DNA from: Lacinutrix mariniflava
GTDB taxonomy: Bacteria; Bacteroidota; Bacteroidia; Flavobacteriales; Flavobacteriaceae
Length of the DNA: 64,000 bases
NCBI RefSeq assembly: GCF_001418015.1
Contig: NZ_LIQG01000032.1
Span: forward strand, 186,001-250,000
Reading direction: 5' to 3'
Shown: positions 463-45,592 of the stretch, one piece after another
How the letters are laid out: every line of letters starts with the position of its first letter
Position numbering within the stretch: the first letter of the stretch is position 1
Made by a program: the position numbers and the translations under genes
The notes under the pieces: model-generated
What the model was told of the DNA's origin: nothing
Seen by the model: only the letters and a program-made list of their open reading frames with translations
Databases searched by the model: none

Positions 463-468
463 AAAAAG

Positions 469-1287: not shown

Positions 1288-3258
1288 TTATTGCTTTACT
1301 TCTTCAATAGTTAAGTCGTTATACTGCACCAAGTAAACACTTTCGTTATAATAACCACCAAACAATTTCTTTTTATAAGCAAACTTATTCTCTATGTAAG
1401 ACGTCATTGGACTATCGCTAGTAGACTGATATAAGTCTGGAGAGGTTGCTAAACGTAACACCACATCCATTGTTAAATCGAAACCACGAATAGCATATTC
1501 ATTTGGTGAAATATTGTATTGTTGCTTGTATTGTTTTACAAATGAATTACTCGTTTCCGAATTCAACATTTTAGAAATTGAAGGATAAGTAAAATGAAGA
1601 TTAGATAAATGGTAATTATCTACTTCCTCATTTTCAAATGCTTTATTTTGGTTTGTTGTTGTTAACGTAATTTTAGTTCCTTCTTTCTGTAAACCGTTAA
1701 GAAGACTTGACACATTAGACACAAATCCTGCATTATTGGTTTCTAAAAACACAACATTATTTCCAGGCTTGAGCGCATTAATTAAATCACTATCTAAAAC
1801 ATAATAGGCATCTTTTTTAGTTTTCTTATCTAAACGAGAACTAACTAATTTTGCATTAGCAAATTTATTCTTAAGCATTGTACTTGTCGCTTTTCGCTTA
1901 ACATCTGAAATTATGATAATTTGCGCTGTAGAATCTGCTTTAAAATAGTTTATAATTTTATTCTTTAAATTACCATCATTTGGCCTAGATTGAAATACGT
2001 TACGACCTACTTTTACCGTCTTTTGTAATGGCGAAACTACAGGTACGTTATCACGTTCTAAAGCACTTGCCGCAGCATTAAAATTACTGGTAAGTAATGG
2101 CCCAATAACCGCTTGAGTATTCGAAAAGCTATTACTGCTTAAAATAGAATTTACTTGACTTAATCTATTTTGTGTATCGTAAACATCTACTTTAAGGTTG
2201 ATGCCTAATTTTTTAAGCGAATCGAATGCTACTAAAACACCAGAGTAAAAATCTAAAGTAATATTTAGGGTTCTATCATTTTTAATTTTCGATTTAGCAT
2301 CAAAAACAGAATCTGTATTAATTTTATTAAGCGTAAAAGGTAACATTACAGCTATATTTTTAACACTAGTATCTGTTACGTTATCAGATAATTTAACAAT
2401 TTCTGAAACGTTATCAATAACACCATTTAAAGCACTTATACTTTCGGTATCATCTACAGACGTATCGAAAGGTACTTTTAAAATCATACCTTCTTTTAAA
2501 CCCGTAACTACTAAATCTGGATTTAAGCTCTCTAGTACTTTTTGCTCTACACCTAATTTTGTTTTTAGCCTATAAAAACCTTCTTTAGGTAGTACTTTAT
2601 AATAACTATATTTTGTATCAATTGTCTTAACTTTATCTTTTTCTAAATTAGGAACATTAATAGTTTGCCCTGTTTGTAACATGCTAGCCATGTTTGGGTT
2701 TAACGCTTCTAATTCTTGAACAGTAATACCAAACTTGTATGCAATACGCCACTTCCCTTCTTTTGGCTGTACAACATAGCTTGTACCTTCCGATGTTGCT
2801 TGTGCATCTTCGTATGTAATCACTTTGTTGTATACTGGAATTTGTAGTCTATCTCCTTTTCTAAGATTATTAGCATATAAAAATTTGTTATGTCTTTTAA
2901 TCTCTTCTATTTCTACATCATACTTTTTAGAGATACTAAATAATGTTTCTTTTCTTCTTGTTTTATGCTTGATGTAGCGATCGAAAGTTTTATCCACAAC
3001 TTTTACCTTTTCTGGCTCTGTTGTAGTTGTTGTAGTTACACTTCCTGCTTTTGGAATTATTAAAATTGAATTTGGACTTAATTTTTCTCTTGCATCTGGA
3101 TTCAGTTTAAAAATATCTGAAGTAGAAACTTTATATTTCTTAGCAATGGCTTCTACTGTCTCTCCTGATTTAACTCTATGTGTATTATATTTCTGTGCAT
3201 TTGCAGAGGCACAGCTTAATATTACGAATAGGCTAAGGATGTAAATTATTTTCTTCAT
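1288..3258 (-). CDS. LysM-repeat protein with periplasmic-binding-like domain
   Basis: 656 residues. An N-terminal signal (MKKIIYILSLFVILSCASANA) ends in either a lipobox-like ILSC or an ANA-Q cleavage site. Four LysM modules follow at roughly residues 26-70, 98-142, 160-202 and 218-262 (for example HRVKSGETVEAIAKKYKVS), which bind peptidoglycan glycans. Residues about 300-650 resemble a type 1 periplasmic-binding fold as in ABC-transporter substrate receptors (IAVMLPF, AVIGPLL, VVSPLQK). In Flavobacteriia this combination is common and is thought to be a cell-wall-anchored periplasmic protein, but its ligand is unknown. It is separated from guaA by a dispersed repeat. Confidence 0.85.
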   Translation of the reverse strand: MKKIIYILSLFVILSCASANAQKYNTHRVKSGETVEAIAKKYKVSTSDIFKLNPDAREKLSPNSILIIPKAGSVTTTTTTEPEKVKVVDKTFDRYIKHKTRRKETLFSISKKYDVEIEEIKRHNKFLYANNLRKGDRLQIPVYNKVITYEDAQATSEGTSYVVQPKEGKWRIAYKFGITVQELEALNPNMASMLQTGQTINVPNLEKDKVKTIDTKYSYYKVLPKEGFYRLKTKLGVEQKVLESLNPDLVVTGLKEGMILKVPFDTSVDDTESISALNGVIDNVSEIVKLSDNVTDTSVKNIAVMLPFTLNKINTDSVFDAKSKIKNDRTLNITLDFYSGVLVAFDSLKKLGINLKVDVYDTQNRLSQVNSILSSNSFSNTQAVIGPLLTSNFNAAASALERDNVPVVSPLQKTVKVGRNVFQSRPNDGNLKNKIINYFKADSTAQIIIISDVKRKATSTMLKNKFANAKLVSSRLDKKTKKDAYYVLDSDLINALKPGNNVVFLETNNAGFVSNVSSLLNGLQKEGTKITLTTTNQNKAFENEEVDNYHLSNLHFTYPSISKMLNSETSNSFVKQYKQQYNISPNEYAIRGFDLTMDVVLRLATSPDLYQSTSDSPMTSYIENKFAYKKKLFGGYYNESVYLVQYNDLTIEEVKQ

Positions 3259-3279
3259 ATGTTTATTATACGTTCAAAG

Positions 3280-3438
3280 TTGCGTTAGCGGTTGTAGTGG
3301 CATCCTTTTTTAGCGAATTATTTAAATATCCCTTACTCTTAAATGAAAGAGAACGTTTAAAAAAGATCCCAAATCTAGTTTAGGACTACTTCGCAAAAAA
3401 GATATAACGGAAGACGCGACCCTTGTGGTAACGCCCAA
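3280..3438 (+). repeat. Dispersed intergenic repeat, copy A
   Basis: This starts with TGCGTTAGCGG...GTGGCATCCTTTTTT and ends with AAAAAAGATATAACGG...GGTAACGCCCA. The same ordered blocks occur at 9,703-9,786 and, degenerate, at 56,837-56,880. Copy A carries about 75 extra bases in the middle. All three lie between genes, in the same orientation. A short palindrome of another common type (CGAT-AACT-ATCG, 3,462-3,473) follows. Confidence 0.65.
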
Positions 3439-3502
3439 GTTATCATTACTATTTGTTCTCTCGATAACTATCGGGATCGAAAATTACTCGCAGTGACCTT
3501 TT

Positions 3503-5035
3503 TTATTCCCACTCTATTGTTGCTGGTGGCTTACTACTAATGTCGTAAACTACTCTATTAACGCCTTTTACTTTGTTTATTATATCGTTACTGGTTTTTT
3601 GCAGAAATTCGTAAGGTAAATTTACCCAATCTGCAGTCATACCATCTGTACTTTCTACTGCTCTAAGTGCTACACATTTTTCGTATGTACGCTCGTCTCC
3701 CATAACTCCAACACTGTTTACAGGTAACAAAATTGCACCTGCTTGCCATACTTTATCATATAAACCAGCGTCTCTTAATCCGTTAATAAAAACAGCATCT
3801 ACTTCTTGTAATATACGCACTTTTTCTGCTGTAATATCTCCAAGAATTCTAATGGCTAAACCAGGTCCAGGAAATGGATGACGCCCTAATAAGGTTGGAT
3901 CCATATCCATTGATGCACCTACTCTTCTTACCTCATCTTTAAATAAGGCTTTAAGTGGCTCTACAATTTTAAGCTTCATAAAGTCTGGCAATCCACCAAC
4001 ATTATGATGGCTTTTTATGGTTGCACTTGGTCCTCCTGTTGCACTTACACTTTCTATAATATCTGGATATATTGTGCCTTGTGCAAGGTATGTTACATCT
4101 TCTATTAAATTTGCTTCTTGATCGAAAACCTCAATAAAAGCATTCCCTATGGCTTTACGTTTAATTTCTGGATCGCTCAGTCCTGCTAATGCATCCAAAA
4201 AGCGTGCCGAAGCATCTACTCCTTTCACATTTAAGCCCATACCTTTGTACTGCTCTAAGACTTCGGTAAACTCATTTTTACGTAACAAACCGTTATTTAC
4301 GAAGATGCAATATAAGTTATCGCCAATGGCTTTATGCAATAGCATTGCTGCTACTGAAGAATCTACACCTCCTGATAAACCTAAAACGACTTTATCGTCT
4401 CCAATTTTTGCTTGTAATGCTTCTACTGTTTCACCTACAAATGCGTTTGGTGTCCAATCCGGATTTACATTTGCAATGTTTACTAAGAAATTTTCTAGTA
4501 ATTGTTTTCCGTCTGTAGAATGGTAAACTTCTGGATGAAATTGTATAGCGTATGTTGTTTCGCCTTCTATTTTATAGGCTGCATTTTTTACATCGTGTGT
4601 ACTTGCTAGCAGTTTTCCGTTTGTTGGTAAGCTTTTAATGGTATCACTATGGCTCATCCATACTTGACTTCCTGCAGAAATACCTTTAAAAAAGGCATCG
4701 TCTTCTACAAAACTTAAGTTTGCTCTACCGTACTCGCGTGTGTTAGATTCTGCTACTTCTCCACCAGAAAAATGTGCCAAATATTGTGCACCATAACAAA
4801 CCGAAAGCATTGGCTTTACTCCTCTAATACCTTTTAAATCTGGATGAAAAGCATCTTCTGAACGCACAGACATTGGACTTCCCGAAAGAACCACTGCCTT
4901 GTATTCGTCTAAGTTTTTTGGTATTTTATTGAATGGAAATATCTCTGAATAGATATTTAATTCTCTAACTCTACGCGCAATAAGTTGTGTGTATTGCGAT
5001 CCGAAATCTAAAATAAGTACTTTGTCGTGTTGCAT
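3503..5035 (-). CDS. guaA: GMP synthase (glutamine-hydrolysing)
   Basis: Converts XMP to GMP with glutamine and ATP, the last step of guanine nucleotide synthesis. 510 residues, the normal length. The N-terminal class I glutamine amidotransferase has [16 protein letters not shown] and the nucleophile loop [11 protein letters not shown]; the ATP-pyrophosphatase domain has the PP-loop [14 protein letters not shown]; the C-terminal dimerisation domain ends with the conserved [10 protein letters not shown] chose the ATG at 5,035 ([11 protein letters not shown]) over an in-frame TTG two codons earlier because it fits family N-termini. A perfect -7 element ends four bases before this ATG, so the mRNA should have almost no leader. 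Confidence 0.97.
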
Positions 5036-5038
5036 ACG

Positions 5039-5046
5039 CAAAAATA
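5039..5046 (-). promoter_or_regulatory. Bacteroidota -7 promoter element of guaA
   Basis: The minus strand reads TATTTTTG, matching the consensus TAnnTTTG. The final G lies four bases before the guaA ATG. In Bacteroidota, transcription starts only a few bases after this element, so start of transcription and start of translation nearly coincide. Confidence 0.6.
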
Positions 5047-5091
5047 GTAATTGCTTTTTAAATTACGAACGCAGAATTGCCTATTTTTTTC

Positions 5092-6687
5092 TTAAAATGT
5101 TAACACTGTAAACTCGCCTTTTAATGGCTCTAAATTTTCGATTAAATTTGGTACTAATTGATTGCCAAACTCGAGATAAAGCTCACTAAAATTGGTGTTT
5201 CTTTCTTGTAAACTGTTATTAGGAAATAGTTGATTTTGAAGATCGGTCATGCGCTCGACCTGATCTTTTAACTTTCTTTTTTGTGCTGTTAACAAACGTT
5301 TTTCAAGATTCTGCAAGCCATTAACTTGCTTTTTCTCTTGGGCTGACACGGCTCCAACAAAAGACTCGTCGGTTTGTTCGGCTAATGTGTACAACTCCTT
5401 AAACTGATTTTTTAAATGCTTTATTTGCTCTGAAAAATCAATATCGATATTAGAAATGGCTCTCACTTTTTTATTTATGAAAGACTCTCTTTTTAAGAAA
5501 ATATCTTTATTCGAAATATTTAGATTCACTAATTTATCGGCTTGTTGCTTTGTTTTTATTAACACTGAGTTTCGTAATAACAACATAGGAAACACCACGT
5601 TATGAACCTTAAAATTAGATTTTAATTGAAACCAGTATGCTAATTCTCCGCCGCCGCCAATATAACATAGGTTAGGCAAAATGACTTCTTGATATAATGG
5701 TCTTAAAATAACATTAGGGCTAAAACGCTCTGGGAAGTCATAGACTTCTTTTAGTATTTCACTCTTACTCCAGCTTATGTTTGTGTTTAGTACTTTATAA
5801 ACATCATTTTCTAAAACAATGCGTTCTCTTATATCTTTAGTGATATAAAAAAGGTTTATGGCTCTTGGATTTACTTGTAATCCAAAATCTAAAGCTTCAA
5901 TTTCAGCATTTGTTTCTAGAACTTTTTGTTCTGAAATTTGTTCTAACAATTCTCTCTCTATATGAGGAACAAACAAGCGTTTTAACTCTGTATTATTTGC
6001 TTCTACTATTACCAGTCCATATTCTCCAAAGAGTGCGTTGGCAATATATTTTGTAGCGTCTGCAAGGTTATCGTGTTTTAAATATCCGTTTGTAAACAGT
6101 TCACGAAGTGCCTCTGCATTTTTACCAAGACCTAATTCTTGTGAAAAAATATTAAATACATCCTGTAAGCCTTCGGTGTTAAGCTCGCCTACTGCTCCTG
6201 AAGATTCTCTATTCCATTGAATCTTTTTTCCTTTAAAATTGAAATAATTAATTTCATCGAAATCATGATCTTCGGAAGCCATCCAATAGATTGGTACAAT
6301 GTTATTATCTGGGTATTCGTCTTTTAATTGTTTCGCTAAATTTATAGTCGATACAATTTTATGTAAAAAGTATAATGGACCCGTAAATAAATTTAACTGG
6401 TGACCGGTAGTTACTGTAAATGTTTTGCTGTCTTTAAGCGCTTCAATATTACTTAAAGTCGCTGAAGACGTTTCGTTTTTTTGATATTGTTTTTTTAAAA
6501 CCTCAACCAAAGTGTTTCTCGTTTCTTGTTTAAAAGAAGCGCTTTTTTCTTCAATTTGAGCTTTAAAATTTTCTAATTTAGGAAAACGATTATAGAATGG
6601 CTTTAGCGTTTCAGCTTCAGCTAAATAATCACAAATAAGTTTAGAAAAATATCCAGTGTCTTTAAACGAAATACAGTCTGATGGCAT
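5092..6687 (-). CDS. bshC: Bacillithiol biosynthesis cysteine-adding enzyme
   Basis: BshC is thought to add cysteine to glucosaminyl-malate, the last step to bacillithiol, the thiol redox buffer that replaces glutathione in many Bacteroidota and Firmicutes. The 531-residue product has family features: TVTTGHQLNLFTGPLYFLHKI near the N-terminus, PIYWMASEDHDFDEI, the glycine-rich YIGGGGELAYWFQLK, and a long C-terminal coiled coil ahead of the last strand. I chose the ATG at 6,687 (MPSDCISF); the 33 residues of open frame upstream are hydrophobic and untypical of the family. No other bacillithiol gene is in the window. Confidence 0.93.
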   Translation of the reverse strand: MPSDCISFKDTGYFSKLICDYLAEAETLKPFYNRFPKLENFKAQIEEKSASFKQETRNTLVEVLKKQYQKNETSSATLSNIEALKDSKTFTVTTGHQLNLFTGPLYFLHKIVSTINLAKQLKDEYPDNNIVPIYWMASEDHDFDEINYFNFKGKKIQWNRESSGAVGELNTEGLQDVFNIFSQELGLGKNAEALRELFTNGYLKHDNLADATKYIANALFGEYGLVIVEANNTELKRLFVPHIERELLEQISEQKVLETNAEIEALDFGLQVNPRAINLFYITKDIRERIVLENDVYKVLNTNISWSKSEILKEVYDFPERFSPNVILRPLYQEVILPNLCYIGGGGELAYWFQLKSNFKVHNVVFPMLLLRNSVLIKTKQQADKLVNLNISNKDIFLKRESFINKKVRAISNIDIDFSEQIKHLKNQFKELYTLAEQTDESFVGAVSAQEKKQVNGLQNLEKRLLTAQKRKLKDQVERMTDLQNQLFPNNSLQERNTNFSELYLEFGNQLVPNLIENLEPLKGEFTVLTF

Positions 6688-6941
6688 ATATAATTTATAA
6701 TGAAGTGTAAATATAAGATTCTTTATACTAACTATAGTCTTAAAAAAAACATAAAAAATGATCTTAAATCGGTTAGAATTAATCAATTTTAAATGAATTT
6801 ATTACCGATTACAAACTACTAAAGACCTAGTTATTAGTCCGTAAAAATCTAAATTCCTTACCGTTATTCTGTTACTTAAAACTTGTGTTTTTTTCAAGAA
6901 AGCACACTAAACCAAAGCGTTGTTAACTCAGTATTTAAATG

Positions 6942-7622
6942 CTAAAGATACTCTCTGTACTGAAGCACTCTAAAATCGAAAGTATTAAACTTAGGATCAC
7001 TAGCTTTTAGTTGTTTGTATAATGAATTACTGCCTATTGAGATATTTGCAGCTCCAGAGGAAGAGGTTAATGATACTGTTTTTATTACACGTTCCAGTGA
7101 AAGAGATTCCCGCGCTTCGCTCGGAATGACGAATTGATGAACTCTTGGTGTCGCCTTAGAAACTAATTCTAGCTTTATATTGTAGTCTTTTATATGTTTC
7201 CTGAAGAAGTACTCAGGACCATTTTTAGAGTTTCCGCCTGTAAAAAGAATAGTATCTATACTTGGATAATGTTTTAAATAACCAATAACATCGCGAAGTT
7301 GTATGTTTTGCATACCAATATCTGAGGCATCTATTTTCTCGCGTTCGCAGCTGTCTACAATATCGCAAACGCCAATTTTGTGTTTAATTAAAAAGTCTTG
7401 TCTTTCTTTTATAGCTTGTGTGGAATGATCGTAACGTAAATTAAGATTGTGTATTTTATCTATAAACAACCACAAACTATTGTAATAACTACCATAACAG
7501 AAATCGACATCTTTTTCTAAAAGATTTCCCGTGCTAAATCTTGGTGGTGGCAATGTGCCAACAATTAGTTTTTTAGTGTCGTTTTTTATGAATGGCTGGT
7601 ATGGATGTTTGTGTTTGAACAT
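6942..7622 (-). CDS. Uracil-DNA glycosylase family protein with in-frame repeat insertion
   Basis: 226 residues resembling the uracil-DNA glycosylase-like superfamily: LIVGTLPPPR near the N-terminus fits the GxxPG-type active-site loop, VCDIVDSCEREKIDASD follows, and TILFTGGNSKNGPEYF forms the central strand-turn. A base-excision role is inferred from the superfamily and not certain. Residues about 165-178 (VIPSEARESLSLER) are encoded by a GC-rich palindromic repeat of intergenic type that entered the frame without breaking it. After it, VIKTVSLTSSSGAANISIG and the C-terminus FDFRVLQYREYL look normal for the family. Another palindrome abuts the start codon. Confidence 0.8.
   Translation of the reverse strand: MFKHKHPYQPFIKNDTKKLIVGTLPPPRFSTGNLLEKDVDFCYGSYYNSLWLFIDKIHNLNLRYDHSTQAIKERQDFLIKHKIGVCDIVDSCEREKIDASDIGMQNIQLRDVIGYLKHYPSIDTILFTGGNSKNGPEYFFRKHIKDYNIKLELVSKATPRVHQFVIPSEARESLSLERVIKTVSLTSSSGAANISIGSNSLYKQLKASDPKFNTFDFRVLQYREYL
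7091..7131. repeat. Palindromic repeat inserted inside the glycosylase gene
   Basis: A GC-rich segment that forms a hairpin at 7,106-7,127 (ATTCC, GCG, loop CTT, CGC, GGAAT). Its wording (on the minus strand GTCATTCCGAGCGAAGCGCG, then GGAATCTC) is that of a palindromic repeat usually found between genes in Bacteroidota. Here it is read as protein. Base composition stands out clearly from the surrounding gene. Confidence 0.65.
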
Positions 7623-36332: not shown

Positions 36333-36845
36333 ATGACAACTAATAAAAATTACCCTAAATCATTTTCACATATTGGTATTACTGTTCCAGATATAAAAGA
36401 AGCCATAAAGTTCTATTCGGAAGTTATGGGTTGGTATGTAATTATGAAACCTTCTACAATTAAAAAAGAAAAAGAAACTGCTATAGGACAAATGTGTATT
36501 GATGTTTTTGGAAACGATTGGACAACTTTTGAAATTGCACATTTAGCAACGTCAGATGGTATTGGTATTGAGTTATTTTCTTTTCCGAATGGAATTAAAG
36601 AAGCTCCAGAATTTAATCCTTTTAATACAGGGCTATTCCATTTTTGCGTACAAGACCCAAATATTGAAGAATTAATTGAGAAAATTGTTACTTATGGAGG
36701 AAAACAAAGAATGCCTATAAGAGAATACTACCCAAAAGACAAGCCTTTTAAAATGTGTTACGTTGAAGATCCTTTTGGTATTGTTTTCGAAATCTATACA
36801 CATAGCTATGAGTTAACTTATTCTTCGGGTGCTTATTCAAAATAA
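36333..36845 (+). CDS. VOC family (glyoxalase-like) protein
   Basis: 170 residues with two beta-alpha-beta-beta-beta modules: FSHIGITVPDIKEAIKFYSEVMGW at the start and FHFCVQDPNIEELIEKIV followed by CYVEDPFGIVFEIYTHSYE. Likely metal ligands are the His of SHIG, a Glu (GIGIELFSF), the His of FHFC and the Glu of VFEIYT. Family members are glyoxalases, dioxygenases or resistance proteins; no substrate is evident. The ATG at 36,333 was preferred to an in-frame TTG at 36,312 that lies inside the promoter element. Confidence 0.88.
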   Translation: MTTNKNYPKSFSHIGITVPDIKEAIKFYSEVMGWYVIMKPSTIKKEKETAIGQMCIDVFGNDWTTFEIAHLATSDGIGIELFSFPNGIKEAPEFNPFNTGLFHFCVQDPNIEELIEKIVTYGGKQRMPIREYYPKDKPFKMCYVEDPFGIVFEIYTHSYELTYSSGAYSK

Positions 36846-36889
36846 AGGTTACAGTCTATTTAAAAACATAACTCTTGGTTAAAATGACA

Positions 36890-36929
36890 ACTTGACTTTG
36901 TCATTTTTTTCTTCTAACTTCGTTTAACG
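36890..36929 (+). repeat. 40-nt border element, left side of the SMC island
   Basis: ACTTGACTTTGTC, 16 other bases, then TTCGTTTAACG. The same arrangement with the same spacing is at 63,201-63,240, and a weaker copy is at 62,431-62,469. Its last 11 bases are exactly the reverse complement of 43,717-43,727 on the other side of the island. Confidence 0.7.
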
Positions 36930-36995
36930 ATTTTATATCAACGGAGCATTGTGCATAATACTAAAATCGTGCTAAAATTGAACATTTATTTTTTT

Positions 36996-37056
36996 GCCAA
37001 ACGCGCAATGCCAACGCGCGAAAAAATGAAAGGGCTATTTTTTTTTGCCCACGCAC
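36996..37056 (+). repeat. GCCAACGC-type motifs in the leader of the SMC operon
   Basis: GCCAAACGCGC (36,996), GCCAACGCGC (37,010) and GCCCACGCAC (37,047) lie in a 117-base region before the first gene. The first and the last are each preceded by a run of T, giving a loose direct repeat TATTTTTTT-GCC. The GC content stands out. Three exact GCCAACGC copies occur downstream of the operon (43,384, 43,423, 43,461). Confidence 0.55.
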
Positions 37057-37067
37057 AAAACGAAACA

Positions 37068-38264
37068 ATGAACACATTCAATGACATAAAAGAATTGGTT
37101 ACCGCTTTGAAAAGAGAGGAAAAACTGATATCTGAAATGTTTAGTAAAAGAAAATCCATAGACTACAGATTGAGTGACGCATTAGAACTCGTTGATTACG
37201 AAGAAAATCGTATTGATAAGTTAATAGAAAAATCTGTAATAAGAGAAAATGGAGGCTTATTAGAACTTGATGGTCAATTTTTGGAATTCTTTGAACAAGT
37301 CCTTTATGTTAGTGAAGAAATCAACTTGTCTTACATTGATGATAATGTCAAAACTATAAAAGAACATATCCTTTATTTTTTAAATGAGCCTAACGAAAAT
37401 CGAAGATATACATATTTAAGACTAATAAAAAAAACGTTTAGAAATATGGGACTTGTCACACTGCGAAGTGTGGTTGATTTAAGAAGAAATATTGAAAACA
37501 CCTTTAAAAACGAATCTAATTACAAGAACAAACAATTAAAGTTAGAACACCTTGATGAGAAAAGAACAATAGTAACAAATTTGATACAGCAAACATTGAC
37601 TCTTATTAACGAGGAAGAAATAACTTTTTTTAATAGAGCCTTAGACGAAGAATTGAATAGGATTATTATTGAATTAAAACATCAGCTAGGAGAATGTTCA
37701 CACAACCTAATTGAAATAGAAAAACAGATAATTGATTTTCTAAATCAAATAAAACAGCAAGGGAAATTCTTAGAGAAATTACGAAAACTAAAATACTTAA
37801 AAGATAATTTTACTATTGAAGCAGAAACTGACATTAGACAAATAGTATCAACCAAAAATGAAGTGATTTTTGAGGTAAGAACAAGTCAGCCTTTAAATTT
37901 ATCTATTGATTTTCTAAGAGAAAGTGAGAAAGCTTTTGAAGCAATTAAACGAATTGCTAAACAACATAAAGATAGGTTACTCTTCAAGCCAGAAATAGCA
38001 GATAGTATTTCTAATGAATATCTTGAAAATAATATTGAGGAAGAAGTAATGATAAATCTAGAAGAAGTACGAAATCGTTTTGTTGCTACAAGTGATAATT
38101 TATTCAATTTTATTTTAAATTATGATTTTTTAAAAGATGTAGATTTTAATGAACGAGTGACAATATTTTGTCAAATAATTTCACAATATGAACAAGAATT
38201 AAAAATAAAGGACAATTTCCAAATCACCAATGGCGTTGAATATGCTATGGTATTTTCAAAATAA
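37068..38264 (+). CDS. Wadjet/MksF-like kleisin protein (JetA-like)
   Basis: 398 residues, almost wholly helical, no signal peptide. By position and shape it is the kleisin (JetA/MksF) that bridges the SMC dimer: an N-terminal helical/winged region (residues about 1-90, ELVTALKREEKLISEMFSKRKSIDYRLSDAL), a long coiled middle (about 130-290), and a C-terminal globular part. I recognise no Pfam signature, so the role rests on gene order and on the neighbouring proteins. The ATG at 37,068 was chosen because the frame upstream (to a GTG at 36,951) is translated from border-repeat DNA. Six bases separate it from the next gene. Confidence 0.72.
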   Translation: MNTFNDIKELVTALKREEKLISEMFSKRKSIDYRLSDALELVDYEENRIDKLIEKSVIRENGGLLELDGQFLEFFEQVLYVSEEINLSYIDDNVKTIKEHILYFLNEPNENRRYTYLRLIKKTFRNMGLVTLRSVVDLRRNIENTFKNESNYKNKQLKLEHLDEKRTIVTNLIQQTLTLINEEEITFFNRALDEELNRIIIELKHQLGECSHNLIEIEKQIIDFLNQIKQQGKFLEKLRKLKYLKDNFTIEAETDIRQIVSTKNEVIFEVRTSQPLNLSIDFLRESEKAFEAIKRIAKQHKDRLLFKPEIADSISNEYLENNIEEEVMINLEEVRNRFVATSDNLFNFILNYDFLKDVDFNERVTIFCQIISQYEQELKIKDNFQITNGVEYAMVFSK

Positions 38265-38270
38265 ATTTTA

Positions 38271-38843
38271 ATGATTACAAAATATACATCTGAAATATTT
38301 GACGTCCTTCGCAAAGGACAATTCATCTGCTCAAACAGCCCTGAAGATGACATTCAAAAACTTTATAAGATTTTAGAAGATGACGAAACTTTTGAAGATT
38401 TATACGAATACTTTTATCAAATAAACTACATATTAGAACAAGGCAATGAATATTTCTATTTCAGTCGAATAGAAAATAATGCAGACTTAGATAGGAAACT
38501 AGAGAAAGCATTTAATTGGATTGACATACTAGACTTTTTTAAGACTTTTGATTCTTCTTTTGATGTAGGCTTTAGGTTTTCACCATCAGACATTGTAAAT
38601 CAACTAAAAAATAATGCAGATTTAAAAACCAAACTAGAACAATTAAAAAAAATAGGTGTTGACAGAAAAAGTTACTCAGATAGAATAAGAAAAATAATTG
38701 AGAAACTTGAAAAAGATAATTTTATAACATTGGAAAATGAGATTTCTGAAACTTACAAAGTACTTACCTCATTAAATTATTTGAAAGACATTATAACAAC
38801 TATTAATATTCCAGAAGAAATAGAAAATGAGATACCTGAATAA
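38271..38843 (+). CDS. Wadjet/MksE-like accessory protein (JetB-like)
   Basis: 190 residues. The start ITKYTSEIFDVLRKGQFICSNS, then LYKILEDDETFEDLYEYFYQINYILEQGNEYFYFSR, matches what is expected of JetB/MksE (KITE) subunits: a winged-helix opening with a G-x-F-I turn, followed by a helix and a short hairpin rich in aromatic residues. Later parts are helical. KITE dimers bind kleisin and DNA in MukB-type condensins. It overlaps the SMC gene by 17 bases, so their translation is coupled. Confidence 0.75.
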   Translation: MITKYTSEIFDVLRKGQFICSNSPEDDIQKLYKILEDDETFEDLYEYFYQINYILEQGNEYFYFSRIENNADLDRKLEKAFNWIDILDFFKTFDSSFDVGFRFSPSDIVNQLKNNADLKTKLEQLKKIGVDRKSYSDRIRKIIEKLEKDNFITLENEISETYKVLTSLNYLKDIITTINIPEEIENEIPE

Positions 38844-41800
38844 AATAGTTTTTATAAATAGTGCATCTGTACAATATGCAGAAATTGAATTAGACGGAAA
38901 TGTTCACTTAATTGGAACGCAAGGTGTCGGAAAAAGCACCTTACTTCGTGCTATTCTATTTTTCTACAATGCAAATAAAACAAAGCTTGGGATACCCAGA
39001 GAAAAAAAGGGATTTGATGACTATTATTTTCAATATCAAAACTCATATATTATTTACGAAATTATAAAAGACAACATTCCTTTTTGTGTTTTAGCTTACA
39101 GAGTAAATGGAAAAGTTGCATTCAGGTTTTTTAATTCTGAGTATAAGCGAGAATTATTTATCGATAAAGATAATAGAGCTTTTGAAAGTTGGGATAAAAT
39201 TAGAAATGCTTTTGGTAAAGAGATTTATTACACAAATTTAATAAAAAGTTATGAAGATTTTCGTAGAATTATTTATGGAGACAATAGTGGCTTAAAGCCT
39301 GAACTTAAAAAGTATGCTTTAATAGAAAGTAAGCAATATCAAAATATACCAAGAACTATTCAAAACGTACTTCTCAATACTAATTTAGAAGCGAAATTCA
39401 TTAAAGACACTATAATAAATTCTCTAAATGAGGAGGAATTTGTTATAGATATTGAGAATTATTCTAAAAATCATTTACGTGATTTTGAAACTCAAATTAA
39501 CGATATTAAAATATGGTTTAAAGAAAATAGAAAAGGGCAAATTGTTGTTAGGAAACAAGCTGATAAAATTATTGATAGATTCAGAGTGTACAATTTTCTA
39601 AAAAGGGAAAAGAAAGAGCTAGCTTATGAATTAGCATCTAGAATAAATCACATAGAAAATGAAAAGCCACTTTTATCCTCTAGTTTCAAGAAAGAAAATA
39701 ATGAGTTAATTATCTTATATAAAAGTAAAGAAAACTTAAAAGAGCTTCATTTAAAAAGAGAACAAAAGTTAATTTCGAATATTGATTATCTCAAAAAAGT
39801 ATTAACGAAATCAAAAGAAAAAAAGGTTGATTATGACAATAAAAATATCAATCAAATAATTTCAAAAGTTACCAAGAAAGATGCTTTAACTATTGAGCAA
39901 AAAACTTTAGGAGACGAAAAAAATCTGTTAACCTCTAAGTTCGCAGAAATTAGTCAAAAATTTCAAGCTCTCATTTCCCAAATTCAAAATCAACAACAAG
40001 AGTTTACCAATACGCAAAACGCAGAAATCAACAAAATACAGCGTGCTTTTGGAGAAAATAAGACTTCAATATTTGATGCCTATCAAAAATTGATAAATCA
40101 AATTAAAGAAGAAAACAAAGATGAAGTTGATAAAGGCTATAATGTTTTAGAAAAAATAAAAGAAAATGAAAATAGCCTAAAGAGAAACAAATCAGAATTA
40201 AAACATAAAACCTTTTTCTCTACCGAAATTGAGAAGAGTAAAAACGATAAAAAAACACTTGAAGATAAAGTTTCAAGTTCGAAAAGCATCATACTAAATT
40301 CGACAAATCAAACAGCTACAATTCGTAAAGAATGGGAATTAGAGACAAAAGAAGTTGAAAGAATTAATAATTCATTAGTTGAGAAAGAAAAAGAAAAAAG
40401 TGAAAAAATAGCATTTGAAATCGAGAAAATTGAAAACAAAATTCAACAAAGTAAATCTTCTCTTTATGGCTGGCTAAATGACAATAATATTCCTAATTGG
40501 CAAAACACCATAGGTAAAGTAATTGATGAAGATAATGTATTATTCAACACGGAGCTAAACCCAAAACTAATTGATAGTACTTCCTCTACCCTATTTGGTA
40601 TAGAGTTAAACTTAAACACCTTAAAAAACAGTATTAAAACTGTCAAAGAATACAATCAAGAAATTGAAGAATATAAAGGTAAGATTGTTAAAGTTCAAAA
40701 TACTATTAAGCAACTTAATGCAAATAAAGAGGATAGTTTAAAAAAGTTGAAAACTAAATTTAAGAAAAAACTAAATAGTCTTAAAGAAGTTATTGCAGAA
40801 AATGAATATACAATATCCCAAAACGAAGAAAAGTTAAAGAAAAATAAGATTGATTTAGATGACTGGATTTCAAAAGCTAAATCGGAAAAAGAAGCTATTT
40901 TACAAAAATTAGAAAATGATTTAGACGAGGTTGCATCAAAGAAATTAAAAGCTGAAGACAACCTAGAACTTATTAAGAAAGGAATAAGACGTAAAACAAG
41001 CTTAAAAGAAAAGGAACGGGATTCTGAAATTAAATCTTTAGAGGAAATCAGAAACAATACCATTTCCGAAATAAAAACTTCTATATCAAACAGTAAAGAA
41101 GTATCAGATAAACGTATTCAAGAGCTTAAAAAAGAACAAAACTCAGAATTAGACAACAAAGGAGCTGACACGAAAAGACTCAATATAATTGATGATAGAT
41201 TAAACGATATAGTAAATGACTTAGATTATATAAAAGAGAACGAAACAATTGTTATTGAGTACAACAAAGACAAAAGAGAACTCTTTGACAAAGTGCCTCA
41301 ACTAAAAGTTGAGAAAACTAGTTTAGAAAAAAAACAAGCTTCAATAGTTAATGAACATAAAATTGAGTTGAATAAAATCAATTCAAAATATTCTAAACAA
41401 GAAGATTTTGTGAAATCAATACAATCTAAAATTGATGAATTTGATAATGACGAAAAGAAGTTTATTGAATTTAAAGAAAAATCAGAAACCTATAAAAGCG
41501 TTCATATGTATTTTTCTGAGCCAATTAGAGAAATTATTGAGACAAAAACTGCTATCTCAAGTATTGCAGAAATAAATGACAAACACTATAAAGGAATCGA
41601 GACTTTTAAAGAGTTACAACAATCTACAAATGCATTTACAGGTAATTTTAGCGAACAGAATATATTTAGCTTTAAGGTAAAATTAAATGAAGATATTGAA
41701 TATTTAAACTTTGCGTCTGAACTTAAAGAGTTTATCGAATTGGATAAAATTAACGAATATGAAAAACGTGTAAATAACAGATTTGCACATATTATTCGTT

Positions 41801-42531
41801 TAATCGGGAGAGAAACAACTGAACTGAACTCTAAAAAAGGAGAAATTGAGAAAATCATTAAAAAAATTAACGATGATTTTATTGGTAAAAACTTTGTTCA
41901 AGCTATCAAAGGAATGGAAATGAAAACTTTAGAAAGTTCTAATCCAATAGTGAAGTTGTTGATTCAGATAAAAGATTTTAACGATGAAAACAGTATTGCT
42001 TTAGGAGAATCAAATCTTTTTACTTCGTCAGAAAGTAATTCAAAAAATCAAAAAGCTGTTGAGTTATTAAAACAACTTGTCAAAGAATTAATAAAGTCAA
42101 AAAGCACAATGTTAACACTCTCAGAGTCTTTTGATTTACAATTTAGAATAATAGAAAATGATAATGATTCTGGATGGGTTGAAAAACTTTCTAATGTTGG
42201 TAGTGAGGGAACAGATGTTTTAGTAAAGGCTATGATAAACATTTTACTTCTAAACGTTTTTAAAGATAGTGCTTCTAAAAAATTCAAAGACTTTAAATTA
42301 CATTGTATGATGGATGAAATAGGAAGACTTCACCCAAATAATGTTAAAGGGATTTTAAGATTTGCGAACGAAAGAAATATTTTACTAATTAATGGTTCAC
42401 CAACAAGTCAAAATGCTACAGATTATAAATACACCTATAAACTTGCAAAAGAACAATCTAAAAGTAACACTAAAAAATACATCACAAAAATTAATCGATT
42501 GGTTAAAGTAAATACCAAAGTTCTTAATTAA
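38827..42531 (+). CDS. MukB/MksB-like SMC ATPase of a Wadjet-type system (JetC-like)
   Basis: 1,234 residues. N-terminal head with Walker A GTQGVGKS at 30-37; long coiled coil about 250-960 (lysine/glutamate rich); a central segment about 545-600 (YGWLNDNNIPNWQNTIGKV ... FGIELNL) that resembles the hinge of MksB/JetC; and the C-terminal head with a signature-like LSNVGSEGT (1,121-1,129) and Walker B CMMDEIGRL (Asp1163, Glu1164). Such ATPases extrude DNA loops. Together with the Toprim protein they would sense and let small circular DNA be cut. It overlaps its neighbours by 17 bases and one base. Could instead be a housekeeping MksB, but the Toprim partner argues for defence. Confidence 0.88.
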   Translation: MRYLNKIVFINSASVQYAEIELDGNVHLIGTQGVGKSTLLRAILFFYNANKTKLGIPREKKGFDDYYFQYQNSYIIYEIIKDNIPFCVLAYRVNGKVAFRFFNSEYKRELFIDKDNRAFESWDKIRNAFGKEIYYTNLIKSYEDFRRIIYGDNSGLKPELKKYALIESKQYQNIPRTIQNVLLNTNLEAKFIKDTIINSLNEEEFVIDIENYSKNHLRDFETQINDIKIWFKENRKGQIVVRKQADKIIDRFRVYNFLKREKKELAYELASRINHIENEKPLLSSSFKKENNELIILYKSKENLKELHLKREQKLISNIDYLKKVLTKSKEKKVDYDNKNINQIISKVTKKDALTIEQKTLGDEKNLLTSKFAEISQKFQALISQIQNQQQEFTNTQNAEINKIQRAFGENKTSIFDAYQKLINQIKEENKDEVDKGYNVLEKIKENENSLKRNKSELKHKTFFSTEIEKSKNDKKTLEDKVSSSKSIILNSTNQTATIRKEWELETKEVERINNSLVEKEKEKSEKIAFEIEKIENKIQQSKSSLYGWLNDNNIPNWQNTIGKVIDEDNVLFNTELNPKLIDSTSSTLFGIELNLNTLKNSIKTVKEYNQEIEEYKGKIVKVQNTIKQLNANKEDSLKKLKTKFKKKLNSLKEVIAENEYTISQNEEKLKKNKIDLDDWISKAKSEKEAILQKLENDLDEVASKKLKAEDNLELIKKGIRRKTSLKEKERDSEIKSLEEIRNNTISEIKTSISNSKEVSDKRIQELKKEQNSELDNKGADTKRLNIIDDRLNDIVNDLDYIKENETIVIEYNKDKRELFDKVPQLKVEKTSLEKKQASIVNEHKIELNKINSKYSKQEDFVKSIQSKIDEFDNDEKKFIEFKEKSETYKSVHMYFSEPIREIIETKTAISSIAEINDKHYKGIETFKELQQSTNAFTGNFSEQNIFSFKVKLNEDIEYLNFASELKEFIELDKINEYEKRVNNRFAHIIRLIGRETTELNSKKGEIEKIIKKINDDFIGKNFVQAIKGMEMKTLESSNPIVKLLIQIKDFNDENSIALGESNLFTSSESNSKNQKAVELLKQLVKELIKSKSTMLTLSESFDLQFRIIENDNDSGWVEKLSNVGSEGTDVLVKAMINILLLNVFKDSASKKFKDFKLHCMMDEIGRLHPNNVKGILRFANERNILLINGSPTSQNATDYKYTYKLAKEQSKSNTKKYITKINRLVKVNTKVLN

Positions 42532-43394
42532 TGAAATTAACATTAAAAATAGCAAAAGTATTAGTACAACTAATCAACGGAGAATCTATTCCTAATCACT
42601 CTGCAAAAAGTAGATTAATTGACGATTTAGTTTCTGAGAATATTATAACTCGAAAAGGAAAACACAAAAAGTCATTAGAATTAATAAATAAAGTGGATTT
42701 ACACACCTATTTAGCAAATCAATTGCAAATTAATAATTTGAATAAATACATTTTAGCATTAGAAAATGAAAATTCAACTCGTGCAGAACTTGTAAAAATT
42801 ACAACAGATTCTAAAAAATCAAAAGAGAGAGCCTTTAAAGGCTTTTTAGTGAATAGTTATAGTTCTATAAAAGCTGAGCTGAATAATGAAACCATAATCA
42901 TCAATCCTACTAACGGAAGCTTTGTTTTTGTGTATGATTTCGAATCTTTCAAAATTCCAAAGGAAATAACAGTTATAGGAGTTGAGAATGCTAAAAATTT
43001 CAGTCAAATTCAAGAACAGAAATATTTATTTAAAAATCTAAATCCTTTGTTTGTTTCTCGTTATCCTCAAAACCAAAATAAAGATTTTATAAAATGGATG
43101 AATTCTATCCCAAATAATTATTTACATTTTGGAGATTTCGATATCGCAGGAATTGGAATTTACTTAAATGAATATAAAAAGCATTTATCGGGGAAATCGA
43201 CATTCTTTATTCCTGAAAATATTAAAGGTACTTTAAGAAAAAATGGAAATAGAGAACGGTTTGACAACCAAAAAATAAATTTCCAAATTGACAGCATACA
43301 GGAATCAAAAATTTTAGACTTGATTGAGATAATCAAAACAGAAAAAAAAGGTCTAGACCAAGAGTATTATATAGAAACAGATAGCCAACGCTAA
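42531..43394 (+). CDS. Toprim nuclease of a Wadjet-type system (JetD-like)
   Basis: 287 residues. The C-terminal half is a Toprim domain: Glu152 in VIGVENAKNF, and Asp202 and Asp204 in HFGDFDIAGIGIY, the metal-binding residues by which JetD cleaves DNA. KGLDQEYYIE near the end fits the family's conserved tail. The N-terminal 110 residues are helical and shorter than in the roughly 390-residue JetD proteins described for Bacillus. The last codons (D-S-Q-R-stop) are made of a GCCAACGC border repeat, so the original end may have been altered. Start overlaps the SMC stop by one base (TAATG). Confidence 0.82.
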   Translation: MKLTLKIAKVLVQLINGESIPNHSAKSRLIDDLVSENIITRKGKHKKSLELINKVDLHTYLANQLQINNLNKYILALENENSTRAELVKITTDSKKSKERAFKGFLVNSYSSIKAELNNETIIINPTNGSFVFVYDFESFKIPKEITVIGVENAKNFSQIQEQKYLFKNLNPLFVSRYPQNQNKDFIKWMNSIPNNYLHFGDFDIAGIGIYLNEYKKHLSGKSTFFIPENIKGTLRKNGNRERFDNQKINFQIDSIQESKILDLIEIIKTEKKGLDQEYYIETDSQR

Positions 43395-43468
43395 AAGCCA
43401 TACACATTTGCAATTCGCACCAGCCAACGCCACACCAAAAATTGTAAAAGAGTATGTCTTGCCAACGC
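43384..43468 (+). repeat. GCCAACGC repeats at the right side of the SMC island
   Basis: Exact copies of GCCAACGC start at 43,384, 43,423 and 43,461, that is 39 and 38 bases apart. The first is inside the last codons of the Toprim gene. Related motifs stand upstream of the operon (36,996-37,056). The intervening bases are not repeated, which excludes a CRISPR array. Confidence 0.6.
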
Positions 43469-43539
43469 ACACTTCCGAACTAAATAAGAAACATCGGAAA
43501 ACCAAGCAGAACGTGAAAAGCACTATGTACAACAATGTA

Positions 43540-43730
43540 TATAAAACATAGCTATTACAGGCTTTCCGAGAGGTTTTTACTTCTTTATTAAGTCCGCCAA
43601 ATTTTTGTTTTTGTATATTTACAAAAATAAAAGATAAATAGAAAAAATAAAAATTCGGCTCGTGTATAATCCGAAACGATAGTGTCTTTTTACACGCTAC
43701 ACTTCATATACGTAACCGTTAAACGAAACT
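43540..43730 (+). repeat. Cassette-border-like repeat element, copy 2
   Basis: A non-coding block with CATAGCTATTACAGGC, AAGTCCGCCAAAT (43,590-43,602), GGCTCGTG, TATAATCCGAAAC (43,665-43,677), the hairpin GTGT-CTTTTT-ACAC, GCTACA, ATATACGTAACC and CGTTAAACGAA (43,717-43,727). A shorter copy is at 323-462. The last 11 bases pair with TTCGTTTAACG at 36,919-36,929 as an inverted repeat around the SMC operon. GTTAAAC and, on the other side, GTTTAAC also satisfy the loose integron core consensus, but nothing else of an integron is seen. The gap from 43,395 to 43,789 holds no gene. Confidence 0.65.
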
Positions 43731-43738
43731 TTAAAAAA

Positions 43739-43766
43739 AATCCCAAAACTCAAAAGCTTTGGGATT
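43739..43766. terminator. Bidirectional terminator between the Toprim gene and argS
   Basis: AATCCCAAA and TTTGGGATT form a 9-bp stem around a 10-base loop. On the minus strand a run of eight T follows directly, so it is a strong terminator for argS; on the plus strand five T follow, so it also closes the SMC island. Confidence 0.85.
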
Positions 43767-43789
43767 TTTACATTTATATATATAATAAC

Positions 43790-45592
43790 CTACATTCTTT
43801 CAGGAACACTTATCCCTAATAAACCAAAGGCATTTTTAATTGTATTTCCAACTGTTTTAGACAACTGCACTCTAAAAGCAATAGATGCTTTATTATCGTT
43901 ACCCATTACAATTGGCAAGTTTTGAAAGAATGAATTATATTCTTTTACCAAATCGTATATATAATTTGCTATTAAAGCAGGACTATAGTTTTGGGCAGCA
44001 CTTTGTATTATTTCTGGAAAAAGTTGTAATTGTTTTAGTACTGCTTTTTCTTTATCTTCTAATTTATAATTTGCTTCGACTGCACTTAAAGTAACATTAT
44101 CATTCTTTAAAGTTGTTTCGGCCTTACGTAAAATAGATTGTATTCTAGCGTACGTATATTGTATAAAAGGTCCTGTATTACCTTGAAAATCGATAGACTC
44201 TTTAGGATCGAAAAGGATTCTTTTTTTAGGATCTACTTTAAGGATGTAATATTTTAAAGCACCTAAACCAATAGTATTATATAATTCTAATTTTTCTTCT
44301 TTATTATAGCCATCAAGCTTCCCTAAGTCTTCAGAAATTTCTTGTGCTGTACCAGACATGTCTGCAATAAGATCATCGGCATCTACAACGGTTCCTTCTC
44401 TACTCTTCATTTTTCCGCTAGGTAAATCTACCATTCCATAACTTAAATGAAATAAATTTTTAGCCCAATCGAAGCCTAATTTCTTCAGTATTAAAAACAA
44501 AACTTGAAAGTGGTAATCTTGCTCGTTCCCAACAGTATAAACCATACCTCCAACATCTGGAAAATCTTTTAAACGTTGTATTGCTGTACCAATATCTTGC
44601 GTCATGTAAACCGCTGTACCATCGCTACGTAGTACTATTTTCTCGTCTAGGCCATCTTCTGTTAAATCGCACCATACAGAACCATCTTCTTTTTTAAAGA
44701 AAACGCCTGTTTTTAAACCTTCGTCTACAAACTCTTTCCCTAATAAATAAGTTTCGCTTTCGTAATACAGCGTATCGAAATCGACACCAAGATTTTTATA
44801 AGTAACATCGAAACCTGCATAAACCCATTGGTTCATGGTTTTCCAAAGCGCAACAACCTCTTTATCTCCTGCTTCCCACTTTTGAAGCATTTGTTGTGCT
44901 TCAATTAAAATAGGTGCTTCTTTTTTTGCTTCGTCATTAGTTTTACCTTCAGCAATTAAAGCCGCTATTTCTATTTTGTATTCTTGGTCGAACTTTACAT
45001 AGTAATTACCAACCAGTTTATCTCCTTTTAAACCAGTAGATTGTGGAGTTTCCGCATTTCCATAACGCTCCCACGCTAACATACTTTTACATATGTGAAT
45101 ACCACGATCGTTAATTATCTGTGTTTTATAAACTTTCTTACCCGAAGCTTTAATAATTTCGGCCACACTATAACCTAATAAATTGTTACGTATGTGCCCT
45201 AAATGTAACGGTTTATTTGTGTTAGGTGAAGAATACTCAACCATAACCGCTTTATCACCTGGTTTAGGAGATGTAAACCCAAAGGTGTCTTGATCTTTAA
45301 TGGCATTGAAAAAAGCAACATAATGCGCATCTACAATTTCAATATTTAAAAAGCCTTTTACTACATTAAATGCCTTTACTTCATCTACATTATCAACTAA
45401 AAATGCACCAATAGCTTCTCCTATTTGTACGGGATTTCCTTTTACTACGCGTAACATTGGAAATACAACTATAGTAATATCTCCAGCAAATTCTTTACGT
45501 GTTGCTTGAAATTCTACGGTTTCTAAATCGGCTTTATAAACTGTGCTAATAGCTTGTTTTACGGCTTTTGTTAATATTACTTGAAGGTTCAT
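43790..45592 (-). CDS. argS: Arginine--tRNA ligase
   Basis: Charges tRNA-Arg. 600 residues, class Ia. Motifs: the HIGH motif as HLGHIRNN after SSPNTNKPL, the KMSKS region as GKMKSREGTVVDADDL, and the C-terminal anticodon-binding helices ending AFGLLGISVPERM. I chose the ATG at 45,592 (MNLQVILTKAV); the open frame above it overlaps the promoter element. The gene is monocistronic. Confidence 0.97.
   Translation of the reverse strand: MNLQVILTKAVKQAISTVYKADLETVEFQATRKEFAGDITIVVFPMLRVVKGNPVQIGEAIGAFLVDNVDEVKAFNVVKGFLNIEIVDAHYVAFFNAIKDQDTFGFTSPKPGDKAVMVEYSSPNTNKPLHLGHIRNNLLGYSVAEIIKASGKKVYKTQIINDRGIHICKSMLAWERYGNAETPQSTGLKGDKLVGNYYVKFDQEYKIEIAALIAEGKTNDEAKKEAPILIEAQQMLQKWEAGDKEVVALWKTMNQWVYAGFDVTYKNLGVDFDTLYYESETYLLGKEFVDEGLKTGVFFKKEDGSVWCDLTEDGLDEKIVLRSDGTAVYMTQDIGTAIQRLKDFPDVGGMVYTVGNEQDYHFQVLFLILKKLGFDWAKNLFHLSYGMVDLPSGKMKSREGTVVDADDLIADMSGTAQEISEDLGKLDGYNKEEKLELYNTIGLGALKYYILKVDPKKRILFDPKESIDFQGNTGPFIQYTYARIQSILRKAETTLKNDNVTLSAVEANYKLEDKEKAVLKQLQLFPEIIQSAAQNYSPALIANYIYDLVKEYNSFFQNLPIVMGNDNKASIAFRVQLSKTVGNTIKNAFGLLGISVPERM

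What the first reader, a model, noticed from the sequence alone, without database searches (positions are those of the whole stretch)
37068..43394. Divergent Wadjet/MksBEFG-type condensin defence operon
Seen: four tightly packed plus-strand genes (gap of six bases, then overlaps of 17 and one) coding for a 398-residue helical protein, a 190-residue winged-helix-like protein, a 1,234-residue SMC-type ATPase (Walker A at 30-37, hinge-like segment at about 545-600, Walker B at 1,163-1,164) and a 287-residue Toprim protein (Glu152, Asp202, Asp204). Known: this order and these parts are those of JetABCD, which restricts plasmids and phages by loop extrusion and DNA cleavage. Inference: a Bacteroidota branch of Wadjet. 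The first protein shows none of the familiar JetA domains to my eye, so the system may be a new subtype.
Basis: partly seen in the sequence, partly recalled or inferred. Interest (0 to 1): 0.88.

Follow-up and report, generated by a model that had tools for sequence, protein, structure and literature searches.

The report
Divergent Wadjet operon beside cassette site
Four genes form an unfamiliar version of Wadjet, a bacterial machine that reels in and cuts small DNA circles such as plasmids, and a folded DNA site behind them suggests the set may travel as a gene cassette.

Summary
Four plus-strand genes (37068-43394) encode a kleisin-like protein, an MksE/KITE, a DUF3584/MukB-type SMC and a Toprim nuclease, in JetA-B-C-D order. 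It is a Wadjet/MksBEFG relative, not RecN/SbcC, and too divergent for PADLOC's Wadjet models. Of 24 loci found with D as query, 22 hold all four genes in this order; contig ends cut the other two. E152, D202 and D204 are invariant in 44 of 44 rows. MksE occurs in 1 of 13 genomes of the genus. Some distant relatives lack D.

Unexpected: behind the operon lies an attC-like folded site (43531-43724) that recurs behind unrelated genes in 50 of 119 related genomes, often clustered on one strand. Another Wadjet type in another genus carries an 84% identical 347-bp tail. All four distinct IS110 copies read in this genome sit at one point of such sites. So the operon may be a large gene cassette of an integron-like system without a recognised IntI. 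Plasmid restriction is inferred; nothing was tested at the bench.

The parts
37068..38264 (+). Gene A: JetA/MksF-like kleisin, 398 aa; start codon ATG 37068
   Evidence: 25 aligned homologues; AlphaFold model with N-terminal winged helix about 18-67, helices 88-247, low-confidence linker 249-325, C-terminal winged helix 331-397, mean pLDDT 72; Foldseek ranks 1-10 all JetA or MukF, E 1.3e-3 to 0.12
38271..38843 (+). Gene B: JetB/MksE-like KITE subunit, 190 aa
   Evidence: Pfam PF21980 MksE 157.9 bits, cut-off 27; weak DUF4194 (JetB type I), 13.8 bits, below cut-off
38827..42531 (+). Gene C: JetC/MksB-like SMC ATPase, 1,234 aa; Walker A 30-38, hinge block about 543-600, signature about 1125-1129, Walker B 1163-1164
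   Evidence: Pfam PF12128 DUF3584 182.6 bits over residues 18-1195; conservation
42531..43394 (+). Gene D: JetD/MksG-like nuclease, 287 aa; winged-helix-like about 1-83, Toprim about 100-286 (E152, D202, D204)
   Evidence: Pfam PF23947 46.9 bits; fold match to 8b7f Z 12.1 and 7til Z 11.2; residues invariant in 44 of 44 rows
43395..43530 (+). Spacer shared with the tail of another Wadjet type and with sister operons
   Evidence: 83.6% over 347 bp (43395-43740) directly behind the last gene of L048's operon; 82-91% over 76-156 bp behind D in L001, L002, L011 and L014, 79% over 330 bp in L006
43531..43724 (+). attC-like folded site: AAC 43531-43533, stem arm 43537-43552, stem arm 43696-43711, GTTAAAC 43718-43724
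   Evidence: Stem with covariation over 11 copies; the window's own copy has 12 of 14 pairs; copies behind unrelated genes

Best explanation
The four genes are a divergent Wadjet (JetABCD/MksBEFG) system. Shown: the operon, its SMC, MksE and Toprim families, conserved ATPase and nuclease motifs, a kleisin-like model of A, and patchy distribution. Inferred from characterised Wadjet systems: kleisin A and KITE B bridge the heads of a C dimer; two such motors joined through A load on DNA and extrude loops; on a small circle the motors meet, D's Toprim dimer is released from inhibition and cuts both strands, so small plasmids and perhaps circular phage intermediates are lost while the chromosome is spared. 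Second, weaker inference (about 0.5): the operon arrived as a gene cassette through the attC-like site behind D.
For: Family matches; conserved order in 22 of 24 loci; invariant Walker and Toprim residues; fold of D and of A; at least 9 of 24 D homologues, not the window's own, match a PADLOC JetD1 model at E below 1e-3, best 3.7e-7. Defence-like neighbours in some relatives: AbiEii and HsdM in L022, McrBC in L017, an OLD-type Toprim ATPase in L004 (chosen by eye, no baseline). Patchy: MksE in 1 of 13 genomes of the genus and 12 of 149 relatives; the nearest congener has other ORFs at the site. Mechanism of Wadjet: PMC10586767, sections 4 (part 1) and 7 read. C. glutamicum MksG E236A and D279A have drastically impaired nuclease activity: PMC10123090, passages.
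Against: No experiment. A has no sequence-level match to JetA, and its Foldseek E-values are individually weak. Profile comparison with a type I set is weak for A and D and moderate at best for B and the N-terminal head of C. D-less relatives with intact ATPase motifs exist, so the core may do something besides plasmid cutting. DUF7281 was found in 1 of 395 sampled phylum genomes, the window's own, so that Pfam model hardly sees the family.
Confidence: 0.82

Rival explanations
1. It is chiefly a chromosome-organising MksBEF condensin, and D is an accessory that can be lost.
For: Four relatives with full flanks have A-B-C without D (L069, L070, L074, L098); D is absent genome-wide in G490 and G651 while two positive controls hit; their Walker and signature motifs are intact. 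[quoted passage not shown]
Against: MksE is absent from 12 of 13 genomes of the genus, unlike a housekeeping condensin, and D keeps invariant catalytic residues. That D is present throughout the 24 loci says little, since D was the query; but the four close relatives found through MksE also carry D (L038, L039, L040; L028, whose A and B scores equal those of L022).
Confidence: 0.1
2. It is an anti-phage system whose natural target is phage DNA forms, with plasmid restriction secondary.
For: Defence-like neighbours in some relatives; a restriction-like three-gene set lies between two attC-like sites in the same genome.
Against: Characterised Wadjets act on small circular DNA independent of sequence (PMC10586767). 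No relative of D was found in the viral contigs or phage records, which says nothing about targets.
Confidence: 0.15
3. The SMC protein is a RecN, SbcC or Lamassu-type repair or defence ATPase, and the resemblance to Wadjet is superficial.
For: Weak coiled-coil matches to LmuB models appear in some distant relatives.
Against: Full-length DUF3584 match and MksE partner; no SbcC, RecN or SMC_N family among the seven matches at E up to 1 for the window protein.
Confidence: 0.03

Closest known systems
Wadjet type I (JetABCD; C. glutamicum MksBEFG)
   Same: Gene order A-B-C-D, KITE/SMC/Toprim parts and a kleisin-like A, EN and GDxD Toprim motifs aligned with a type I set, DUF3584 SMC
   Different: A lacks DUF3375 and has no Jet match; B is MksE, with DUF4194 only below cut-off; D is 287 aa against 380-403 aa in the JetD_C loci read here; PADLOC names all four type I proteins of L154 but not this set
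MksBEF (P. aeruginosa condensin) and MukBEF
   Same: MksE family match; A's model resembles MukF
   Different: A fourth gene for a nuclease; patchy distribution
Other MksE-like operons met here (L041-L047; L048 and L077 with order C-D-A-B; L072 with order C-B-A-D; L075 and L076)
   Same: Same parts; the C heads of L072, L075-L076 and L077 and the D of L048 with L077, of L075 and of L072 align better with the window profile than the type I set does
   Different: Gene order and sizes; A aligns with none at useful score, B gives mixed results, and L041-L047 align worse than type I for the N-terminal head of C and for D
Integron attC sites and cassettes
   Same: AAC, inverted stem, GTT; site 3' of genes; same-strand clusters; IS110 insertion at one point of the site
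   Different: No IntI above the NCBIfam cut-off in 198 relatives; a long form of about 190 bp beside a short form of about 125 bp; the cassette here would be about 6.8 kb

Membership tests
Wadjet / JetABCD (MksBEFG) | SMC ATPase of the MukB/JetC (DUF3584) kind | tested here: met
   182.6 bits over residues 18-1195, cut-off 31; Walker A, signature and Walker B residues conserved
Wadjet / JetABCD (MksBEFG) | KITE subunit (JetB/MksE) | tested here: met
   MksE 157.9 bits, cut-off 27
Wadjet / JetABCD (MksBEFG) | Kleisin subunit (JetA/MksF) | tested here: inconclusive
   No sequence match; kleisin-like model and top ten Foldseek hits JetA/MukF, none at E below 1e-3; the VIA list mixes MukF with unrelated helical bundles at equal Z
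Wadjet / JetABCD (MksBEFG) | Toprim nuclease with acidic residues (JetD/MksG) | tested here: met
   Z 12.1 to 8b7f and 11.2 to 7til, Topo VI-A tied; E152, D202, D204 in 44 of 44 rows
Wadjet / JetABCD (MksBEFG) | CAP/winged-helix domain in front of the Toprim | tested here: inconclusive
   Residues 1-83 align with winged-helix repressors at Z about 5, which may be only a common arrangement
Wadjet / JetABCD (MksBEFG) | Cleavage of small circular DNA; block of plasmid uptake | not testable with these tools
   Needs bench work
Wadjet type I, II or III as modelled in PADLOC-DB 2.0.0 | Matches to JetA, JetB, JetC and JetD models of one type | tested here: not met
   Window: no Jet model for A, B or D (B has only chance-level Cas12 matches); C matches JetC1 over 54 residues, 25.6 bits. 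Type I control L154: all four matched strongly. No type II or III control was run
RecN / SbcC / Rad50 | Family match of the ATPase | tested here: not met
   No such family among the matches at E up to 1
Integron gene cassette (attC part) | Folded site R''-L''...L'-R' with conserved structure | tested here: met
   34 of 46 copies have 13 or more of 14 stem pairs against 11 of 920 mononucleotide shuffles; 8 of 16 pairs with changes on both sides, 0 of 500 shuffles as high. Copies are related and the structure was drawn from one of them, which favours it
Integron gene cassette (attC part) | Site follows a gene; arrays in one orientation | tested here: met
   24 of 37 sites lie -35 to +30 bases from a same-strand ORF end against 43 of 618 random places; one-strand clusters in several genomes, mixed strands in others
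Integron gene cassette (attC part) | IntI integrase | tested here: not met
   0 of 198 relatives over the TIGR02249 cut-off, own genome included

The most novel reading that the evidence does not exclude
Flavobacteriaceae run an integron-like cassette system of their own: folded attC-like sites of two size classes, same-strand arrays, IS110 elements that target the sites, and a dedicated 376-390-residue tyrosine recombinase with its own N-terminal extension in place of IntI. This system moves whole defence operons, including two Wadjet types of different gene order that share a 347-bp tail, as single large cassettes.
Probability: 0.4. Interest if true: 0.75.

Novelty: new variant of a known kind. 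Interest (0 to 1): 0.5.

Why it matters
A Wadjet lineage that current defence models miss would add to the known spread of SMC-based plasmid defence, and its D-less relatives let one ask directly how a plasmid-cutting machine becomes a plain condensin. The attC-like site gives a testable route by which a four-gene SMC machine can jump between genomes, and points to a cassette system in a phylum where the IntegronFinder 2 paper names a single complete integron in Bacteroidetes proper, in Salinibacter ruber (PMC9024848, passage).

Tried and rejected
Sequence search of solved structures with all four alignments found no SMC, kleisin or nuclease relative (with E limits of 10, 10, 0.01 and 10; the best for B, photosystem I subunit II at E 1.5e-4, was taken as chance). 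VIA re-alignment of A does not separate MukF from syntaxin- and STAT-type helical bundles. PADLOC gave nothing for A in 26 of 26 members. No relative of D was confirmed in viral contigs or found in phage records. DUF7281 as a probe for the phylum is nearly blind (1 of 395). Folding the site of the window as single-stranded DNA was not better than shuffles (z -0.68; -1.96 for L172; -2.13 for the longer stretch); the support comes from covariation and the cross-copy tests, not from energy. In one search the measure 'further pair types' was reached by 13 of 500 shuffles. Rfam has no match above gathering in 36500-44000. A promoter scan found no more sites than shuffles. Co-occurrence of the tyrosine recombinase with the site core is clear over 119 genomes (both 36, core only 14, recombinase only 22, neither 47, p 1.4e-5) but not within the family alone (34/11/16/11, p 0.12; for the form with the extension 25/20/11/16, p 0.17), so it may reflect taxonomy. 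The array heads read were chosen because listings showed a recombinase hit near by, so they are not a fair sample; the own genome has no hit at E 1e-80. The joined flanks of the operon did not match any congener across the junction. The left border is not clean: homology with the congener ends just past CGTTTAACG at 36921-36929. I considered that the repeat is a MITE-like insert; its usual place just behind stop codons argues against that but does not exclude it. Passages of PMC12287153 added nothing used here; the listings were seen as listings only.

Rows dropped: the tree of C left out loci with C under 1,000 aa or none (L010, L024, L107, L108, L109); L101 was labelled D-minus there although its contig ends 55 bases after C, so I do not count it (by hand, four changes remain without it). 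In some searches D rows under 250 aa and, short A and C rows and weak B rows were left out. In one search sites near locus ends were not tested for distance (37 kept).
Full report
Observation. One search confirms four plus-strand ORFs at 37068-43394 with the stated spacing; homologues favour the start of A at 37068 over the upstream GTG. Pfam places B in MksE (157.9 bits), C in DUF3584 over nearly its whole length (182.6 bits) and D in DUF7281 (46.9 bits), and leaves A unnamed. Key Walker A, signature and Walker B residues of C are invariant in 23 of 23 rows. The clearest conserved block between the coiled coils lies at about 543-600, as expected of a hinge.

Relatives. Twenty-four loci were found in the species-representative collection with D as the query: 22 hold A-B-C-D in the same order, and L010 and L024 are cut by contig ends. 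Since D was the query, its presence is no finding; that of A, B and C is. Among 149 relatives 12 have an MksE match, and within the genus 1 of 13 genomes, the window's own; three of the thirteen are under 90% complete. In the nearest congener the site holds a different two-ORF insert; in two other congeners sprT and argS are neighbours. Among 35 loci compared, some with short flanks, the only match to seven genes flanking the operon in the window is one histidine-kinase hit in L005. L019, a record of a Bathymodiolus endosymbiont (unclassified in the taxonomy; the B. azoricus symbiont of L024 is a gammaproteobacterium), has the operon between chorismate mutase/prephenate dehydratase and aminotransferase genes, with G+C 0.27 against flanks of 0.39. 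This points to recent transfer, perhaps between phyla, if the assembly is right.

Proteins. D models well (mean pLDDT 85). Its C-terminal domain is nearest to C. glutamicum MksG (Z 12.1) and P. aeruginosa JetD (Z 11.2), tied with Topo VI-A; residues 1-83 resemble winged-helix repressors at Z about 5, a level that may mean only a common arrangement. E152, D202 and D204 are invariant in 44 of 44 rows and align with the EN and GDxD motifs of a type I set, in an alignment of low probability. In C. glutamicum MksG the residues E236 and D279 are needed for cutting (PMC10123090, passages); the equivalence is by motif. A models less well (mean pLDDT 72) but with the order winged helix, helices, linker, winged helix. 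Its ten best Foldseek matches are JetA or MukF chains (E 1.3e-3 to 0.12). I take A as the kleisin with good but not certain support.

Type. PADLOC names all four proteins of a type I control operon at high score, but of this set it gives Jet matches only for C, the best over 54 residues. At least 9 of 24 D homologues reach a JetD1 model weakly. Profile comparison of C heads ranks other groups met here (L072, L075-L076, L077) above type I. So the operon belongs to a broad part of the Wadjet family outside these models. I know no published subtype for it; the searches were made, of which DUF7281 and the two Bacteroid searches returned nothing. The original Wadjet and Mks papers were not read; I write about them from recall or from the review.

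Loss of the nuclease. Four relatives with full flanks have A-B-C without D (L069, L070, L074, L098). D was not found anywhere in the genomes of L074 and L098, with two positive controls, and no remnant was seen in the four loci (best E 0.063 elsewhere in a locus). On the tree of C the D-minus label needs at least four changes; L101, labelled there but uncountable, does not alter the count by hand, and L070 is a long branch of unsure place. L074 is sister to a D-bearing locus. The record of L069 is called a plasmid but carries housekeeping genes.

The site behind the operon. The 346 bases after D recur. An 83.6% identical 347-bp copy stands directly behind the last gene of a differently ordered Wadjet-like operon in another genus of the family (L048), and other copies stand behind unrelated genes of the same genome. 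The core has two arms of 16 bases that pair with two near-constant mismatches. Among 46 distinct copies, 34 have 13 or more of 14 pairs against 11 of 920 shuffles (the window's own copy has 12), at two distances of about 100 and 163, and 33 of the 39 best have GTT just behind. Covariation over 11 copies: 8 of 16 pairs change on both sides, none of 500 shuffles as high. A detector made no hit in 1.28 Mb of shuffled sequence, and 24 of 37 sites lie at an ORF end on the same strand against 43 of 618 random places. The 5' core occurs in 50 of 119 relatives and its reversed control in none; in G000 (10 of 10) and G008 (10 of 10) all matches are on one strand, in others they are mixed. In Tamlana haliotis (L006) the same Wadjet operon is followed by four such sites on one strand.

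IS evidence. An IS110-family transposase lies in the same array. Four of four distinct copies read sit between CATATAC and ACACGTT. At each of the four points the base pairs of the site are there: 13 or 14 of 14, with mismatches at the same positions 7 and 12, an AAC box 3 bases before the first arm, and arm sequences that differ between sites (shuffles as good: 2, 0, 0 and 0 of 200). I recall that IS1111-attC elements do this in integrons, which no call checked. These are the marks of attC sites.

What is missing. No IntI reaches the cut-off in 198 relatives. A 376-390-residue tyrosine recombinase, for which one model named recombinase/integron integrase passes its cut-off in 2 of 4, stands upstream of sites in four of the seven regions read (L224-L227). 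L228 has it without a site in the stretch, L229 has a truncated copy, and L210, of the own genome, has other recombinases. These regions were chosen with it in view, the own genome lacks it at E 1e-80, and co-occurrence within the family is not significant. The right border of the insert fits: chromosome homology resumes at 43731-43735 in the four congeners aligned over that stretch, close to GTTAAAC at 43718. The left border is less clear, and among the sister operons only L006 shows the whole site right behind D; L001, L002, L011 and L014 show its first part or the spacer. I put the cassette reading of this operon at about 0.5. Integrons have been reported in Bacteroidota (PMC9668308, passage), and IntegronFinder 2 reported a complete one in Salinibacter ruber (PMC9024848, passage), so attC sites in the phylum are not new as such. 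That integron cassettes carry defence genes is known to me from recall only. That the window's family is Flavobacteriaceae is inferred from the named nearest rows of the C tree.

Verdict. A real, well-conserved, mobile operon that very probably works like Wadjet and is a variant outside the models tested. The route of its mobility is the more surprising part and needs its own test.

Noticed in passing
L171 (own genome C20) 1288-7091: Two attC-like sites bracket a three-gene set: N6-methylase with HSDR_N domain, AAA_15 ATPase, and a 218-aa protein without a family; a restriction-like operon as a cassette candidate.
   Followed up: partly
L170, L171, L211 (own genome C20, about 34-68 kb): Four distinct IS110-family copies, all inserted between the second stem arm and GTT of attC-like sites.
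   Followed up: yes
L224-L229: Tyrosine recombinase with a roughly 100-residue N-terminal extension, upstream of sites in L224-L227; truncated in L229.
   Followed up: partly
L104 3597-4637: A YhcG/DUF1016 PDDEXK nuclease gene stands between B and C of a four-gene operon.
   Followed up: partly
L019 4546-10855: Low-G+C operon inside an aromatic-amino-acid gene row of a mussel symbiont record; possible transfer between phyla.
   Followed up: partly
phylum sample, genus g166 of family f32: Classical JetD (PF09983) is in 39 of 296 genomes, 32 of them from this one unnamed genus, two with four matches.
   Followed up: no
window 320-466: A 29-bit match to the site model at the window's left edge, overlapping the end of an ORF.
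   Followed up: no
L107: C is split in two ORFs beside an otherwise complete A-B-C-D set.
   Followed up: no
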